A stretch of 24,200 nucleotides of DNA, taken from positions 1 to 24,200 of IMG/VR virus record IMGVR_UViG_3300015371_000171; one strand, 5' to 3'. The notes beneath the pieces are model-generated. The model was not told the origin of the DNA, searched no databases, and worked only from the letters and a program-made list of their open reading frames with translations. The stretch is from a virus. The position numbers were made by a program, and so were the translations under genes. This document shows positions 3,689-24,200 of this stretch, piece after piece (within the stretch, counting starts at the first letter, position 1; every line of letters begins with the position of its first letter).

Positions 3689-4471
3689 TTAAAGTGCTGC
3701 TATTTCAGCAATGGGCGCGCTTGGCACATGCGGCGCGGGCTCGCTCTTGCGCCAATGCTGCTTGATCCATGCCGCTTCGTTTTGCACATTCGGGTGCCAG
3801 GGCTTCTTCTTGCCGTGAAAGAAAACAATAGATGTGCCATTGACTAGCTTCGGCCGCCTGGCCACCTCTCTCGGGTAGGAGACCGCCGTGGGAAAGCCCC
3901 AATTGCCGCAGGTCGAATCGCCCGCGAAATTGTAGCTCAACCAGGACTGGTCGCTGCCGAGATAGCCAGCCTGGTGCACCGCATCCGGCGTGCGCTCGGG
4001 ATTGAATTGGGTCCAGACCTTGCTGTTCTCGCGGGCGGTAAACATCCACATGCTGCCGTTAAAGACTCGAAGGTGATGTGAGCCCCTGACCGCCCAACCT
4101 ACAAAATGCTGCGGCTTATTCCAGAGCGGGCGCATATCGCCAGTGATCACAGAGTCAAGATCGATTGAACATATGCGCTGGCCTGGCGCTATGCCCATGG
4201 CCTCTTGAGTCTTTGGGTCAAAGAGTTTCAAGCGCCTATAACAAGAGGGAAGATTGGCCCCGGAGCGATTGCTTAGCCCGCTATGGTCATCCCAAAGCGG
4301 AAAGACATCGCACCCTTCTATCCCACTCGGGTCATCAGTCACGCAAATAATTCGAAAAGGCATGCCATGAGCATGCCGCCTGAGCATGCTGACCATGACA
4401 TTGACGTGCTCGGAAAGATAGGCATGCTTGAAATTTGCTTGCACCCATTTCCAGAGCACAACATTCAGCAT
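3689..4471 (-). CDS. GT-A fold glycosyltransferase (GT8-like)
   Basis: This 260-residue protein probably transfers a sugar from a nucleotide-sugar donor. It has an N-terminal Rossmann-like opening (VVLWKWVQ, then HVNVMVSMLRRH, then FRIICVTDD), followed by the metal-binding DxD motif at residues 104-106 (SIDLDSVITGDM), where DLD is preceded by hydrophobic residues as usual in GT-A enzymes. A later 'FNGSMWMF' and 'GSDQSWLS' resemble the acceptor-side motifs of GT8-type enzymes, and 'VFFHGKKKPW' ends the core. The ATG overlaps the stop of the upstream glycosyltransferase by seven bases. The donor and acceptor cannot be read from the sequence. Confidence 0.78.
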   Translation of the reverse strand: MLNVVLWKWVQANFKHAYLSEHVNVMVSMLRRHAHGMPFRIICVTDDPSGIEGCDVFPLWDDHSGLSNRSGANLPSCYRRLKLFDPKTQEAMGIAPGQRICSIDLDSVITGDMRPLWNKPQHFVGWAVRGSHHLRVFNGSMWMFTARENSKVWTQFNPERTPDAVHQAGYLGSDQSWLSYNFAGDSTCGNWGFPTAVSYPREVARRPKLVNGTSIVFFHGKKKPWHPNVQNEAAWIKQHWRKSEPAPHVPSAPIAEIAAL

Positions 4472-5172
4472 GGGAAAACCCGCTCATAGGGAAAGCTCCC
4501 ACGCAAAGGCTGCCAGCCCAATTCGGCTTCGCGCTTGTGCTTTATAGCCTTGATCGCTGGCTTGTCCTCGGGCTGCTTGCGGAGATAGGTTGTGGTCGAA
4601 GCATCAGCGATCACAGTGCGCGGCACCCGAATGATCGGCTGAACAAATTGCCGCACTGGATAAAGCGCGCGCAGCCGCTCCGAGAAATCGCCATCAGTGC
4701 CATAGAAGCCAGCGAAGCGCTCATCATAGCCGCCGACCCGCTCAAATTGTCGCTTAGTCATGAGCCAGGTATTCGGGTGCGGCTTATAGACCACCAATTC
4801 CGGGGCGGAAACCCGCGCGAATTGATAGACTTGCTTCTCCGAATGCTCGCCAAGCAAGACCGCCCGCCAAGTCTCTTCTGGCACTAGGTGATCGATGTCA
4901 GTCATCAGCACCCAGTGCGTTTCAGCATGAGCTACGCCTATATTGCGCGCTGCATCCTGGTTCCAGCGCACATCCACCTTGATCCTGTAAAGCTGGAGCG
5001 CCACACCATAGAGATCCTCAGCATGCGCCGGGTGCTTGGGCGAGCCGTCATCCACAATGACCACCGAGAGCCAATCCCGGAGATCGCGCGGCAATGACCG
5101 AAGATGCCGATAATATTCCCGCAGCATGCCGGGGTTCTCATAATAGGGCATGACCAAGCTGACCGGAGTCAC
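4465..5172 (-). CDS. GT2-type glycosyltransferase
   Basis: This 235-residue protein is a family 2 (GT-A) glycosyltransferase. It opens with SLVMPYYENPGML, has 'VVIVDDGSP' with DDGS at residues 41-44 for nucleotide binding, then 'NQDAARNIGVAHA', and the metal-binding DxD as DID at residues 92-94 (LMTDIDHLVP). A 'GGYDERFAGFYGTDGDFSERL' segment matches the acceptor-side ED-type motif of the family. The GTG start at 5172 overlaps the stop of the DUF115-like gene (GTGA). It sits in a run of three sugar-related genes between the endolysin and the prohead protease, so it probably acts with its neighbours on one glycan. Confidence 0.88.
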   Translation of the reverse strand: MTPVSLVMPYYENPGMLREYYRHLRSLPRDLRDWLSVVIVDDGSPKHPAHAEDLYGVALQLYRIKVDVRWNQDAARNIGVAHAETHWVLMTDIDHLVPEETWRAVLLGEHSEKQVYQFARVSAPELVVYKPHPNTWLMTKRQFERVGGYDERFAGFYGTDGDFSERLRALYPVRQFVQPIIRVPRTVIADASTTTYLRKQPEDKPAIKAIKHKREAELGWQPLRGSFPYERVFPC

Positions 5173-10786: not shown

Positions 10787-11383
10787 TTAGGGCTTCGGCT
10801 TGGCGGCCGAAGGCGTCGGCACACCGGGATGCTCACCCGACGGCACGATCACCGTCACCCACCCGCTCTGTGGCGTCCAAGCGGTCTTCGCGTCCCAATT
10901 CTCCAGTATCTGCGGCTTCTCGCCGGAGCCTTCCGGTGGCAACACGATAGGATGGGTTGGCACACCAGGAGACGGCCAAATGCTGGGTGGAATATAGATC
11001 GGGTGCGTCGGCACGCCAGGAATCGTCCCAGGCGGGAGATAGATCGGCGGAGTCGGCATTGGTTGCGGACCAGGAAGGCCCTGGTCAGGGTAGAGCGGCG
11101 GCCCGCCCCAAATGCCCGGAGGCCTGCCGCCTGGGGCTATGGGATGTGTCGGAAAGCCCGGACCCTGAGATGGATAGGGAGGCTGACCACCGGGAGCGAT
11201 TGGATGGGACACCCACGGCGGGGCAACGCCGCCCCAGGTGCCAAGCGGCGGACCGCCCGGAGCAATCGGGTGCGTCGGGAAGCCCGGACCCTGAGATGGA
11301 TAGGGAGGCTGGCCAGGAAGCCCCTGGTCAGGCACGCCGCCTCCAGAGCCAAGCGGAATGATCAATGCATAGATCGGACCCAT
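10787..11383 (-). CDS. Proline/glycine-rich repeat protein, possible virion surface or fibre component
   Basis: This 198-residue protein starts MGPIYALIIPLGSGGG and then consists of imperfect repeats built from short modules such as 'PDQGLPG', 'QPPYPSQGPGFPTHPIAPGG' and 'GVPTHPIYIPP'. The largest exact unit recurs at a 42-residue distance. The C-terminal 45 residues are different ('PPEGSGEKPQILENWDAKTA', 'TPQSGWVTVIVPSGEHPGVP') and could be a small folded tail. I recall similar 'PDQGLPG'-type proteins in other phages, without known function. No collagen triplet periodicity is present. GAGGAG precedes the start. It lies between methyltransferase 1 and the hairpin-rich gap; a surface-exposed, extended role is inferred from composition. 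Confidence 0.8.
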   Translation of the reverse strand: MGPIYALIIPLGSGGGVPDQGLPGQPPYPSQGPGFPTHPIAPGGPPLGTWGGVAPPWVSHPIAPGGQPPYPSQGPGFPTHPIAPGGRPPGIWGGPPLYPDQGLPGPQPMPTPPIYLPPGTIPGVPTHPIYIPPSIWPSPGVPTHPIVLPPEGSGEKPQILENWDAKTAWTPQSGWVTVIVPSGEHPGVPTPSAAKPKP

Positions 11384-21077: not shown

Positions 21078-21500
21078 TTAATAATATCTCCTTCGGGTGC
21101 GCGGGCGGCGCGGGTTATTGGCTATGGCTACGGAATTCTCCAGGGCGCGGTATTGCTTCTCCGTCAAAAATTTCTTTTCCTTCCACCATTGATGCATATC
21201 GTTCAGGAATTCCGTGAAGGAAGGCGAAGCATTTCCAGCAAACAATACCACATCGAACCACTCATCGATATGCGGCTCGCGATGATGTGCGGGATTAGTA
21301 TTGGGTGCTGGCGCGGTTGGAATTGGCGCGGCCACATTTATTTGAACCCGCCCGCGAATGACCTGGTCCCAATTGACATCGATCTTGGTCAATTCGGCAT
21401 TGGCCAGGCGCAAAGCGCTCAGCGCCTCGTTGTCATGCTGGGAAGTGGTCATCATCATGAGTTTGATGAACTTGTCCAAATTGAAATCCTTACCACTCAT
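21078..21500 (-). CDS. Phage protein, DUF2786-like N-terminus, unknown (140 aa)
   Basis: The N-terminus 'LDKFIKLMMMTTSQHDNEAL' then 'SALRLANAELTK' resembles the helical opening of DUF2786-type and related phage proteins (K--KL--m--S----EA--A---A). A linker rich in alanine, proline and asparagine follows, then a helical domain ('FLNDMHQWWKEKKFLTEKQY') and a basic tail ('NPRRPRTRRRYY'). It is coupled to the helicase (ATGA overlap). A DNA-binding accessory to the helicase is plausible by position. Family call is weak. Confidence 0.7.
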   Translation of the reverse strand: MSGKDFNLDKFIKLMMMTTSQHDNEALSALRLANAELTKIDVNWDQVIRGRVQINVAAPIPTAPAPNTNPAHHREPHIDEWFDVVLFAGNASPSFTEFLNDMHQWWKEKKFLTEKQYRALENSVAIANNPRRPRTRRRYY

Positions 21501-23095
21501 GCCGCCGTCTCCTTCGCTTGCTCATAGCGCCAGCCCACAACCGAGTAATATTTGCCCTCGGGGCGAACCTGGATCTGGTTTGGCTGCCTAAGCTCCCCTA
21601 CTCGGCTCAGAGCCTCGTCGGTGCTCCTCGGAATTTGCCCGCCTCCGGCCCTAGCCCACCAGCGCTCGGCATGCATGCGCGGAATACCATTGTGATCGAA
21701 ACAGGCCCAATGCCTATAGCGAAGGAGCCCGCAAGCATATTCCGCCCGCAAGCTGCTCGGCTTGCCCGCCTTGTTGTGCTTGAAATATTCCAGGCCCGTA
21801 ACATTGACCCATTGCGGCGGGCCTTGCGAGAGAATAGGCGATTTAGAATCGGCGGTCGCATTGTGTGGGGGAAGGCTCTCATCATTGAAAACATGCCCGC
21901 AGTCCGGGCACTCCTGGCACGCCAGGGCGATTATGCTTTTACAATTCGGGCAAATCTTGACTAGCTTTTCGCCTGGCTTCTTCTCCTTGCTGGCATGGCT
22001 TACGGTGATCATATCAATGGGGCCATGTCGGGCGGTATTGCCAGCGAAGTCCAGCACTAGCGTATTCTTCTTGCCTGGCGCTTTTCTGAGGCCGCGACCC
22101 ACTTGCTGCAAGAAGAGCCCAGCCGAAGCGGTGGGCCGGAGCAAAGCAATAAGATCCACGCCCGGATGATTGAAGCCGGTGCCCAAGACCCCTACCGAAC
22201 TCAAGCACTGAATTCTACCAAGCTTAAAGTTACGAATATGTGCATCGCGCTGGGCCTTCGGCGTATTGCCGGTCACTAGCTCGGCACGTATTCCCAATTT
22301 CACTAGCTCTTCTTTAACATGCCTTGCGTGATTAACGCCAGCGCAAAAGGCCAGCCAGCTTTTGCGGCCCTTGCTGTAGTCCACAATTTCTTTACACGCC
22401 GCTTTGGTGACCCAATCCTTATCGACCGCGATTTCCAATTCATGGGGAATGAATTCGCCGCCTCGCTTGCCCACGCCCTCCACATTGAGCGCGGTAGCGG
22501 TGGCCTTGGACATGAGGTTACAGAGATAGCCGCGCTCTATGAGCCGCCGCACATTGGCTTCGTACACTATCTTATCGAACAACTTATCCTTGCCTCGATC
22601 CAGCCGCCCGCTATCGAGCCGCCATGGCGAGGCGGTCAGCCCAACAATCCTTTGATCCGGCACCGCTTCGCGCTGCCATGCAATGAATTTCCCATACATA
22701 GTGTTAGAGTTCTTGCTGATTAAGTGTGCCTCGTCGATCATCAGAACATCGAAATAACCTATAGCCCGGCGACTGAAAACCGATTGAATTCCGCAAAAGA
22801 GAATTTGTGTGCTGGTATCTCTTTGCCCAATGCCCGCCGAGTAAATTCCAGCCGGGGCCTCGGGCCAGAGCGCGATTAACTCTTTATAATTTTGTGTGAT
22901 TAGTTCCCGCACATGGGTCACAATGCCGATTCGAAGCTTGGGGTAATCTCTAAGAAGTTCTTGGCATAGAGCCGCCATGATGAGGCTCTTGCCGGAGCCA
23001 GTGGGCAAAACGATGAGCCCATGGCCGCCGTCCTTGCGCCAATAGGAATAGAGCGCATTCAGCGCTTGCCACTGGAAGTCCCAAAGCTTCTTCAC
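21497..23095 (-). CDS. DEAD/DEAH-box superfamily 2 helicase with zinc ribbon
   Basis: This 532-residue protein is an ATP-driven nucleic-acid translocase or helicase. Motif I is 'LPTGSGKS' (about 30-37), motif II 'MIDEAH' (119-124), motif III 'LTASPWR' (TAS at 154-156), and in the second RecA domain 'TGFNHPGVDLI' and motif VI 'QVGRGLRK' (Q331, R334, R337). Near residues 382-399 a four-cysteine zinc ribbon occurs (CPNC, CPDC). The C-terminal 130 residues are unassigned. This layout recalls phage helicases of the UvsW/Type III res-like group. The GTG start at 23095 overlaps the previous stop (GTGA). Confidence 0.93.
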   Translation of the reverse strand: MKKLWDFQWQALNALYSYWRKDGGHGLIVLPTGSGKSLIMAALCQELLRDYPKLRIGIVTHVRELITQNYKELIALWPEAPAGIYSAGIGQRDTSTQILFCGIQSVFSRRAIGYFDVLMIDEAHLISKNSNTMYGKFIAWQREAVPDQRIVGLTASPWRLDSGRLDRGKDKLFDKIVYEANVRRLIERGYLCNLMSKATATALNVEGVGKRGGEFIPHELEIAVDKDWVTKAACKEIVDYSKGRKSWLAFCAGVNHARHVKEELVKLGIRAELVTGNTPKAQRDAHIRNFKLGRIQCLSSVGVLGTGFNHPGVDLIALLRPTASAGLFLQQVGRGLRKAPGKKNTLVLDFAGNTARHGPIDMITVSHASKEKKPGEKLVKICPNCKSIIALACQECPDCGHVFNDESLPPHNATADSKSPILSQGPPQWVNVTGLEYFKHNKAGKPSSLRAEYACGLLRYRHWACFDHNGIPRMHAERWWARAGGGQIPRSTDEALSRVGELRQPNQIQVRPEGKYYSVVGWRYEQAKETAA

Positions 23096-23373
23096 TCGAC
23101 CTCCTCGAAGGTCGCATGGTAGGCTGTTAGCGGGCGATTCGGCTTGCCGTCGGGCCGGAATGGCACGGTCTTGCTCCGAGCCCGCCAGGTATCCATGGCC
23201 TCTTTCAGATCCTTGAAGCGCAAAGCCTCTTCGATCTTAGACGTACACACTACTCTGCCGCGCCCTTGATAGGCTTCGAGGTCATAGCGCTTGAGGTATT
23301 TCCATTCCGGCTCGTTGCCTTGCGCTGTCTCCGCGATAAATTGGATCTTGTCGAAGTACGGCACAATCTTCAT
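23092..23373 (-). CDS. Small phage protein, unknown (93 aa)
   Basis: The ATG at 23373 overlaps the stop of the repeat ORF (ATGA); an in-frame ATG at 23385 would lie inside that ORF. The protein has 'MKIVPYFDKIQFIAETAQGN', 'EALRFKDLKEAMDTWRARSK', and ends 'RPDGKPNRPLTAYHATFEEV'. I recall similar small phage proteins with the terminal P-RPDG-PNRPLTAY pattern, function unknown. It precedes the helicase with a GTGA overlap, which suggests a role tied to it. Confidence 0.76.
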   Translation of the reverse strand: MKIVPYFDKIQFIAETAQGNEPEWKYLKRYDLEAYQGRGRVVCTSKIEEALRFKDLKEAMDTWRARSKTVPFRPDGKPNRPLTAYHATFEEVE

Positions 23374-23720
23374 GACGGTTGGCATGGGTTCGCTCCCTGG
23401 CTTTGGATTACTTCAACACCATGGCTCGCTACCAAAATCGTGGGTTGCTTACCTCCTGTTGGCTCGCTGTGCGGCCTTGGGTTACTTATAGTTATTGGCT
23501 CGCTTACGAATCGTGGGTTTCTATCAATAGCTGGCTCGCTTTCCGAAGTTGGGTTACTGGCTATGATTGGCTCGCTTCTGAGCGGTGGGTTACTAATATT
23601 GTTTGGCTCACTAAACCGCAACTGGGTTACTTTCTTTTTTTGGCTCGCTGAAGCCGTCTGGGTTTCTCGCTTCCCTTGGCCGCGCACAATAGCAAGAAAA
23701 AGAAAGAAAGCCAATTTCAT
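23370..23720 (-). CDS. Repeat protein with S-E/N-P-x-x-x hexapeptides and an N-terminal hydrophobic stretch (116 aa)
   Basis: The ATG overlaps the nuclease stop (ATGA) and the stop overlaps the next start (ATGA), the same coupling as its neighbours, so translation is likely. Residues 1-12 (MKLAFFLFLAIV) are hydrophobic, too short for a sure signal peptide. From about residue 37 come alternating SEPxxx and SNPxxx hexapeptides, for example SEPNNI SNPPLR SEPIIA, where the xxx part varies in every copy. The underlying DNA array extends past both ends of this in-frame part, where it is out of frame. The last 25 residues are unlike the repeats. No known family. It may be a real secreted or scaffold-like peptide, or a frame passing over a DNA-level element. 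Confidence 0.55.
   Translation of the reverse strand: MKLAFFLFLAIVRGQGKRETQTASASQKKKVTQLRFSEPNNISNPPLRSEPIIASNPTSESEPAIDRNPRFVSEPITISNPRPHSEPTGGKQPTILVASHGVEVIQSQGANPCQPS
23396..23685. repeat. Tandem array: constant 9-mers alternating with variable 9-mers, 36-bp period
   Basis: On the plus strand TGGCTCGCT recurs at 23422, 23460, 23496, 23532, 23568, 23604 (TGGCTCACT), 23641 and, degenerate, 23677. Between these lie TGGGTTACT-type words (TGGGTTGCT or TGGGTTTCT in some), each separated by nine variable bases. Steps are 38, 36, 36, 36, 36, 37 and 36 bases. The two constant words share six of nine bases, so the basic step may be 18 bases. A further partial unit lies near 23403. The spacers show no evident similarity to each other. 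Confidence 0.85.
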
Positions 23721-24200
23721 TTTCCATCGACCCAGGTTGCTCCATTGCGAAGCGTATAGGTTACGGTACGCTTCTCTTCATCGCTATCCGTTTGCTCGCC
23801 TGGCACCAGGCTTGGCAAATACAAATGGCGGTCACATCCCTTGCGTTGCTCTTCATAAGTCAGTTCTTTATTCCAAAAGCGGCAACGGACCACCGCGCCT
23901 GGCAAAAATTCCGCCTCCAGGCATGTCCGGCAATTGAGCCGAGCCCATGCGCCATCATGGCATAACGAGCGGGCCGGGCACCATTGGCAAGCATAGGCGG
24001 CGCGGTCATTGGGATTCTCGAAGAGGCGAGGCGGAGCCTTATCAGAGCCCACAACATGCTCGATCTTTTTAACCGCGCGTTCGGCAAAGGCCCGGTCAAA
24101 ATAGATCCGCTCGCTATAGAGCGAATCGTCGTTTTTATTGATCGCCAGATAAAAGCATCGCTCTAGCTTTTCCGCATACATATACAATTGGCATTGCAGA
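23717..24200 (-). CDS. PD-(D/E)XK nuclease, RecB/Cas4-like (C-terminal part)
   Basis: The frame is open from the window edge to the stop at 23717; the N-terminal part with the catalytic D and E-x-K is outside. The visible start of the frame, 'LQCQLYMYAEKLERCFYLAI', contains the Q-x-x-x-Y motif that follows the active site in RecB-family nucleases, then 'NKNDDSLYSERIYFD', typical of phage exonuclease relatives. The C-terminal region has seven cysteines in about 50 residues ('CQWCPARSLC', 'NCRTC', then two single cysteines), possibly a zinc or Fe-S site as in Cas4. It probably processes DNA ends in recombination with the nearby helicase. An internal TTG at 24187 is not a likely start. Confidence 0.78.
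   Translation of the reverse strand, partial: LQCQLYMYAEKLERCFYLAINKNDDSLYSERIYFDRAFAERAVKKIEHVVGSDKAPPRLFENPNDRAAYACQWCPARSLCHDGAWARLNCRTCLEAEFLPGAVVRCRFWNKELTYEEQRKGCDRHLYLPSLVPGEQTDSDEEKRTVTYTLRNGATWVDGK

What the first reader, a model, noticed from the sequence alone, without database searches (positions are those of the whole stretch)
23396..23685. Array of constant 9-mers alternating with variable 9-mers, overlapping a hexapeptide-repeat ORF
About eight 36-bp units of the form TGGCTCGCT, nine variable bases, TGGGTTACT, nine variable bases. On the minus strand this encodes S-E-P-x-x-x S-N-P-x-x-x. Two facts conflict. The ORF is bounded by ATGA overlaps on both sides, which favours translation. 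Yet units at both ends have one or two extra bases that put them out of frame while their constant words stay intact, which favours a function of the DNA or RNA itself, for example iteron-like binding sites for a replication protein in the replication module. The spacers differ in every copy, so simple recent duplication does not explain it. The near-identity of the two constant words suggests an older 18-bp unit.
Basis: partly seen in the sequence, partly recalled or inferred. Interest (0 to 1): 0.8.

Follow-up and report, generated by a model that had tools for sequence, protein, structure and literature searches.

The report
Phage guide-RNA array of TIGR type
The odd repeat in this phage is a TIGR array, a recently described cassette whose RNA is expected to be cut into eight small two-part guides that lead a partner protein to matching DNA; the kind is known, but the partner gene is not in the sequenced fragment.

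Summary
On the minus strand, 23,386-23,681 holds two alternating 9-nt words, AGCGAGCCA and AG[T/A/C]AACCCA, separated by 16 different spacers (13 of 9 nt, 3 of 10 nt), i.e. eight 36-38-nt units. The best explanation is a TIGR (tandem interspaced guide RNA) array, as in TIGR-Tas (Faure et al. 2025, PMC12045711). A blind search of viral contigs with the repeat grammar alone found 16 other arrays; 13 have a shared same-strand gene close by, whose profile matches only TasR, TasH and IS621 in the whole PDB. A second scan found Tas in 44 of 50 array-bearing records. Details also fit: shared 'xG...CCA' boxes, an extra pairing in the edge repeat only, truncated edge repeats at both ends. Spacers in relatives are not depleted of stop codons, so the 'S-E-P-xxx' ORF is incidental. 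No Tas gene lies in the 24.2-kb record, which ends 519 bases beyond the array; the closest relatives lack both array and Tas. So the array is a confident member, the complete system is unproven here, and an array without its own Tas is possible. Iteron and coding-repeat readings are not supported.

The parts
23386..23681 (-). [quoted passage not shown]
   Evidence: grammar as in PMC12045711
23677..23681 (-). 5'-truncated edge repeat (GGCCA) that opens the array
   Evidence: sequence; same kind of start in L014, L174, L203; described as typical in PMC12045711
23645..23680 (-). unit 1 (36 nt): GCCA-AGGGAAGCG-AGAAACCCA-GACGGCTTC-AGCGA
   Evidence: cut position inside the edge repeat inferred from PMC12045711
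23608..23644 (-). unit 2 (37 nt): spacers AAAAAAGAA / GTTGCGGTTT (10 nt)
23572..23607 (-). unit 3 (36 nt): spacers AACAATATT / CCGCTCAGA
23536..23571 (-). unit 4 (36 nt): spacers ATCATAGCC / ACTTCGGAA
23500..23535 (-). unit 5 (36 nt): spacers GCTATTGAT / CGATTCGTA
23464..23499 (-). unit 6 (36 nt): spacers ATAACTATA / AGGCCGCAC
23426..23463 (-). unit 7 (38 nt): spacers ACAGGAGGTA / CGATTTTGGT (both 10 nt)
23390..23425 (-). unit 8 (36 nt): spacers TGGTGTTGA / AAGCCAGGG; ends in a 3'-truncated edge repeat (AGCGA) just before the next gene
23370..23720 (-). 116-aa open frame through the array; judged incidental
   Evidence: no PHROG match; no frame conservation in relatives
23717..24199 (-). gene upstream of the array: C-terminal part of a Cas4-domain exonuclease (cut by the contig end)
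   Evidence: phrog_1990 E 3e-40
23092..23385 (-). 97-aa protein of unknown function that starts right after the array
   Evidence: no PHROG match, no viral relative found
21497..23095 (-). SF2-type DNA helicase; homologues lie just downstream of tas-array in L182, L192, L194, L236

Best explanation
This is a TIGR array of a tailed phage. It lies in the replication operon between a Cas4-like exonuclease and a helicase and is read on the same strand as the genes around it. The transcript should be cut inside each AGCGAGCCA (edge) repeat into eight 36-38-nt tigRNAs, each holding spacer A and spacer B around an AG[T/A/C]AACCCA loop. A dimer of a Nop-domain Tas protein, probably a nuclease-less TasA because the four partner proteins scanned show no nuclease domain, would bind the AG...CCA boxes of both repeats. 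It would then hold the spacers so that A pairs with one strand and B with the other strand of an 18-bp DNA target. The likely use is programmable binding of competing phage or plasmid DNA. SHOWN here: array anatomy, independence from reading frame in relatives, and linkage of the same array type to Tas genes in many phages. INFERRED from the published systems: transcription, processing, Tas binding, DNA targeting. NOT SHOWN: that this phage carries a Tas gene, which is absent from the fragment held, and what the spacers target.
For: Two alternating 8-12-nt repeats with ~9-nt unique spacers is the published definition. A blind repeat-pattern scan of 2.9 million viral contigs gave 16 arrays with unique spacers; 13 have a nearby same-strand shared protein that matches TaTasR 9MTY at E 1.9e-28 and TasH at 2.4e-15. 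The profile of these proteins hits only TasR (1e-50), TasH (2e-35) and IS621 (0.004) in the PDB; 9MTY is the deposited TasR. Second scan: 44 of 50 array-bearing records carry Tas. 95 of 98 array segments in Tas loci are on the tas strand, median gap 203 bp. Edge repeats can form the extra 3-6 pair in 96.7% of 457 copies, with T-A replacing C-G in L120 and L154; loop repeats in 16.7%. First base covaries between edge and loop (44 A/A, 7 T/T, 1 mixed). Array ends are truncated edge repeats. Tas-array-helicase order with homologous helicases in L182, L192, L194, L236.
Against: No Tas gene in the record, and the nearest relatives by helicase and exonuclease have neither Tas nor array. No terminator after the array and no promoter-like site near it. 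No convincing target for any unit in 1.8 Mb of fetched DNA. Three of 16 spacers are 10 nt, though 28 such spacers occur across all arrays parsed, these three included.
Confidence: 0.95

Rival explanations
1. Orphan TIGR array (a sub-case of the same kind): the phage never had, or has lost, its own Tas. The array is a decaying relic, or is served in trans by a Tas of the host or of a co-infecting element.
For: No Tas in 24.2 kb. Records of 44, 42 and 51 kb (G009, G025, G034) also have an array and no detectable Tas.
Against: 44 of 50 array records do carry Tas; the window record ends 519 bases beyond the array on its upstream side; 15 of 16 words keep both the AG and CCA boxes, so decay is slight.
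Confidence: 0.35
2. Protein-coding hexapeptide repeat (S-E-P-x-x-x S-N-P-x-x-x).
For: Open 116-aa frame with ATGA overlaps; L051 has a 15-repeat array open in the same frame.
Against: Three 10-nt spacers shift frame while words stay intact. In relatives spacers carry stop codons at the shuffled rate, 166 vs 146, and most long arrays are closed in any given frame. No family match.
Confidence: 0.02
3. Iteron-like binding sites of a replication protein.
For: Location in a replication module and regular spacing.
Against: Strand-oriented words with unique spacers; linkage to Tas and not to an initiator in relatives; edge-specific pairing signal; no skew change at the array.
Confidence: 0.02
4. A CRISPR-type array.
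For: Unique spacers between constant repeats, with a Cas4-domain exonuclease next door.
Against: Two alternating 9-nt repeats instead of one 25-36-nt repeat; no effector or cas1/2 gene noticed; the exonuclease is also present in relatives without the array.
Confidence: 0.01

Closest known systems
TIGR-Tas dual-repeat systems (Faure et al. 2025, Science, PMC12045711), TasA type
   Same: Alternating edge and loop repeats of 9 nt, ~9-nt dual spacers, 36-nt unit, xG/CCA boxes in both repeats, truncated edges at array ends, phage carrier, 5-15 units.
   Different: No Tas gene in the fragment; the array sits between an exonuclease and a helicase gene without its own terminator; boxes are AG/CCA rather than the UG/CCA of the solved TasR array.
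TasH system of Salicola phage CGphi29
   Same: Phage-borne TIGR-Tas; its Tas is homologous to the partner proteins of this array type.
   Different: TasH has an HNH nuclease and spacers totalling 16 nt (PMC12045711); partner proteins of the present array type show no nuclease domain in the four scanned.
IS110-family transposases with bridge RNA (IS621) and box C/D snoRNPs
   Same: Nop-type RNA-binding fold and two-part guides (PMC12045711); weak profile match to IS621.
   Different: No transposase and no single bridge RNA; here an array of short guides.
CRISPR arrays
   Same: Constant repeats with unique spacers.
   Different: Repeat length, two alternating repeats, split guide, no cas operon.

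Membership tests
TIGR dual-repeat array | two distinct alternating repeats of 8-12 nt | tested here: met
   AGCGAGCCA and AG[TAC]AACCCA alternate over 16 words
TIGR dual-repeat array | unique spacers of about 9 nt (up to 12) | tested here: met
   16 distinct spacers, 13 of 9 nt and 3 of 10 nt
TIGR dual-repeat array | matching box D and box C motifs in edge and loop repeats, covarying between them | tested here: met
   AG and CCA in both words; 51 of 52 loci have the same first base in edge and loop (positions 2, 7, 8 fixed by the search pattern)
TIGR dual-repeat array | extra base pair in the edge repeat only, kept by covariation | tested here: met
   3-6 pair possible in 96.7% of edge copies vs 16.7% of loop copies; T-A in L120 and L154
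TIGR dual-repeat array | starts and ends with truncated edge repeats (typical) | tested here: met
   GGCCA at start, AGCGA at end
TIGR dual-repeat array | rho-independent terminator after the array (described as typical, not defining) | tested here: not met
   none found after the array; the array runs straight into the next gene
TIGR-Tas system | Nop-domain Tas gene encoded adjacent | tested here: inconclusive
   none in the 24.2-kb record, which ends 519 bases upstream of the array; present in 44 of 50 records with the same array type
TIGR-Tas system | array RNA processed to 36-nt tigRNAs | not testable with these tools
   needs small-RNA sequencing
TIGR-Tas system | tandem-spacer DNA targeting | tested here: inconclusive
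   no target above chance in 1.8 Mb of fetched sequence
CRISPR array | single repeat of about 25-36 nt with spacers of similar size | tested here: not met
   two 9-nt repeats
protein repeat | reading frame conserved across units and relatives | tested here: not met

The most novel reading that the evidence does not exclude
The array is a true Tas-less TIGR array: a guide cassette slipped into a replication operon that relies on a Tas protein supplied in trans by the host, a prophage or a co-infecting phage, so that guide and effector travel separately. G009, G025 and G034 would be further cases.
Probability: 0.25. Interest if true: 0.65.

Novelty: new member of a known kind. Interest (0 to 1): 0.5.

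Why it matters
TIGR-Tas was described only in 2025, and its natural targets, array growth and biological role are open. This locus places a TIGR array inside a phage replication operon beside a helicase and a Cas4-like exonuclease. It also shows that such an array can be recognised from raw sequence by its repeat grammar alone, without its protein. The set gathered here (over a hundred stretches of viral DNA with the same repeat pair, some in long records without a detectable Tas) makes the question of arrays acting in trans directly testable.

Tried and rejected
Coding repeat: rejected by stop-codon statistics and frame-shifting spacers. Iterons: no support. CRISPR: grammar differs. Rfam: no match in the window. 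Named phages by DNA: no match. A closer relative carrying both array and Tas: searched with the exonuclease, the 97-aa protein and the helicase; the relatives found lack both. Spacer targets: units tested as A+revcomp(B) with a 0-2-nt gap and in the opposite geometry; hits at the level of controls, none in the array's own locus. Shared spacers with other arrays: only AAAAAAGAA, in L007 and L015, in the other spacer position, judged chance. Many hits of the genome scan (most of L018-L063) and L017 are ordinary low-complexity coding repeats with identical spacers and were set aside. No structure prediction was run, because the sequence match to solved TasR and TasH was sufficient.

Full report
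OBSERVATION. The window is a whole 24,200-base virus record with a tailed-phage gene set (portal, terminase, primase, helicase, Cas4-domain exonuclease), its main genes on the minus strand. Read on that strand, 23,681-23,386 is: GGCCA, then eight times [spacer, AG(T/A/C)AA(C/T)CCA, spacer, AG(C/T)GAGCCA], with the last edge word degenerate (AGCGAACCC) directly before the ATG of a 97-aa gene. The sixteen spacers are all different; 13 have 9 nt and 3 have 10 nt. Fourteen correctly spaced word pairs occur; 100 Markov simulations of the window gave none.

BLIND SEARCH. The pattern AGYRASCCA-N9, four words long, has practically no chance matches (inference from its information content). It hit 17 viral contig stretches and 46 genome stretches. 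Reading them separates two groups. Most genome hits and L017 are low-complexity coding repeats with near-identical spacers. Sixteen viral contigs (L001-L016) and two MAG contigs (L051 Hadarchaeum, L055 Yanofskybacteria) have the same two alternating words as the window with unique spacers, and many are interrupted by stops in every reading frame.

A SHARED GENE. Comparing all ORFs of those loci with each other showed one shared protein on the array's strand, touching or near the array, in 15 of 18 loci. By sequence it matches TaTasR (PDB 9MTY, E 1.9e-28) and TasH (E 2.4e-15). A profile of 11 such proteins matches only TasR (1.2e-50), TasH (2.2e-35) and the IS110-family IS621 transposase (0.004) in the whole PDB. 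PHROGs calls it 'transposase' phrog_4285 and Pfam gives a weak Transposase_20 match, with no nuclease domain in the four proteins scanned. 9MTY is the TasR structure of Faure et al. 2025 (PMC12045711).

WHAT TIGR ARRAYS ARE. PMC12045711 defines them as two alternating 8-12-nt repeats (edge, loop) with ~9-nt spacers, transcribed and cut in the middle of the edge repeat into 36-nt tigRNAs. Both repeats carry a box D (UG in TasR arrays) and box C (CCA), bound by the two halves of a Tas dimer; the edge repeat has an additional base pair and the loop repeat is A-rich. [quoted passage not shown] Spacer A pairs with one DNA strand and spacer B with the other.

TESTS OF MEMBERSHIP. (i) 102 array segments were parsed from the window and related loci. 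The word AGCGAGCCA (or TGCGAGCCA) is the edge: its positions 3 and 6 can pair in 96.7% of 457 copies (shuffle mean 94.5%, max 95.0%), with T-A instead of C-G in L120 and L154. In the other word only 16.7% can pair and positions 3-5 are A-rich: the loop. Positions 2, 7 and 8 were fixed by the search pattern and position 4 was used to tell the classes apart, so they are not evidence. (ii) The first base agrees between edge and loop in 51 of 52 loci. (iii) The window array starts with a truncated edge (GGCCA) and ends with AGCGA; L014, L174 and L203 have the same kind of ends. (iv) In loci with Tas, 95 of 98 array segments are on the tas strand, median distance 203 bp, with 9 more than 1 kb away and up to 8.9 kb. 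(v) A second scan with a shorter pattern gave 114 stretches; of 50 records searched whole, 44 carry Tas.

CODING OR NOT. Over 803 nine-base spacers, stop codons in the S-E-P/S-N-P frame number 166 against a shuffled mean of 146, so there is no depletion. Of 40 long arrays, 5, 4 and 8 are open in frames 0, 1 and 2. An open frame through an array is therefore ordinary, and the 116-aa ORF needs no special explanation. The downstream 97-aa gene also has a purine-rich AGGGAG seven bases before its ATG (sequence), so it does not need translational coupling.

PLACE IN THE GENOME. The window order is exonuclease - array - 97-aa gene - helicase. In L182, L194, L192 and L236 the order is tas - array - helicase, with a homologous helicase (30-34% identity) and, in L182, L194 and L236, a homologous exonuclease behind it. 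The closest relatives by helicase (58-71% identity, L073-L077) have neither array nor Tas in their whole records and carry other genes in the exonuclease-helicase gap. The gap looks like a cargo site, and the array a cassette (inference).

WHAT IS MISSING. No Tas is found in the record with a profile of the partner proteins or with phrog_4285. The record stops 519 bases upstream of the array, inside the exonuclease, so a tas gene beyond it cannot be excluded. Three long records (G009 44 kb, G025 42 kb, G034 51 kb) also have arrays and no detectable Tas, so Tas-less arrays may be real. No spacer pair of this array, nor the 327 units tested together, has targets above the level of control pairs in 1.8 Mb of fetched DNA. 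No terminator follows the array.

MECHANISM. Most likely (array identity 0.95): operon transcript, processing in the edge repeats with help of Tas, eight tigRNAs, each loaded on a Tas dimer, binding of 18-bp DNA targets by two spacers on opposite strands. Because the four partner proteins scanned lack a nuclease domain, binding without cutting (blocking or bending of competitor DNA) is the more likely outcome. The processing and targeting steps are inferred from PMC12045711; none was shown for this array.

VERDICT. A real, strong array; a new member of a known kind. The open and more interesting point is the array without a visible Tas.

Noticed in passing
L073:7187-8000 (same tract in L074 at about 4213-5020): In the 71%-identical helicase relative the stretch right before the helicase holds a degenerate repeat tract with GG about every five bases (GGCATCGCAGG...), at the spot where the window has its TIGR array. 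Nature unknown.
   Followed up: partly
records G009 (L014), G025 (L174), G034 (L183): Phage records of 42-51 kb with clear AG...CCA dual-repeat arrays and no Tas detectable by the A1 profile.
   Followed up: partly
phages collection, one search hits H6-H40: 75 mycobacteriophage records (for example Moose, Euphoria, Pari) encode a protein about 25% identical to the Tas query, annotated 'transposase' or hypothetical; possible overlooked Tas or IS110-like proteins.
   Followed up: no
L051:1002-2207: In the Hadarchaeum MAG a 15-repeat array is free of stops in the S-E-P frame and runs in frame into the tas gene.
   Followed up: no
window 10787-11383 (-): 198-aa proline- and glycine-rich ORF with repeats such as THPIAPGG...PPGxWGG.
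   Followed up: no
window 23717-24199 (-): The gene overlapping the array's upstream side is a Cas4-domain exonuclease; whether such enzymes take part in TIGR array growth is unknown, and relatives without the array have it too.
   Followed up: partly
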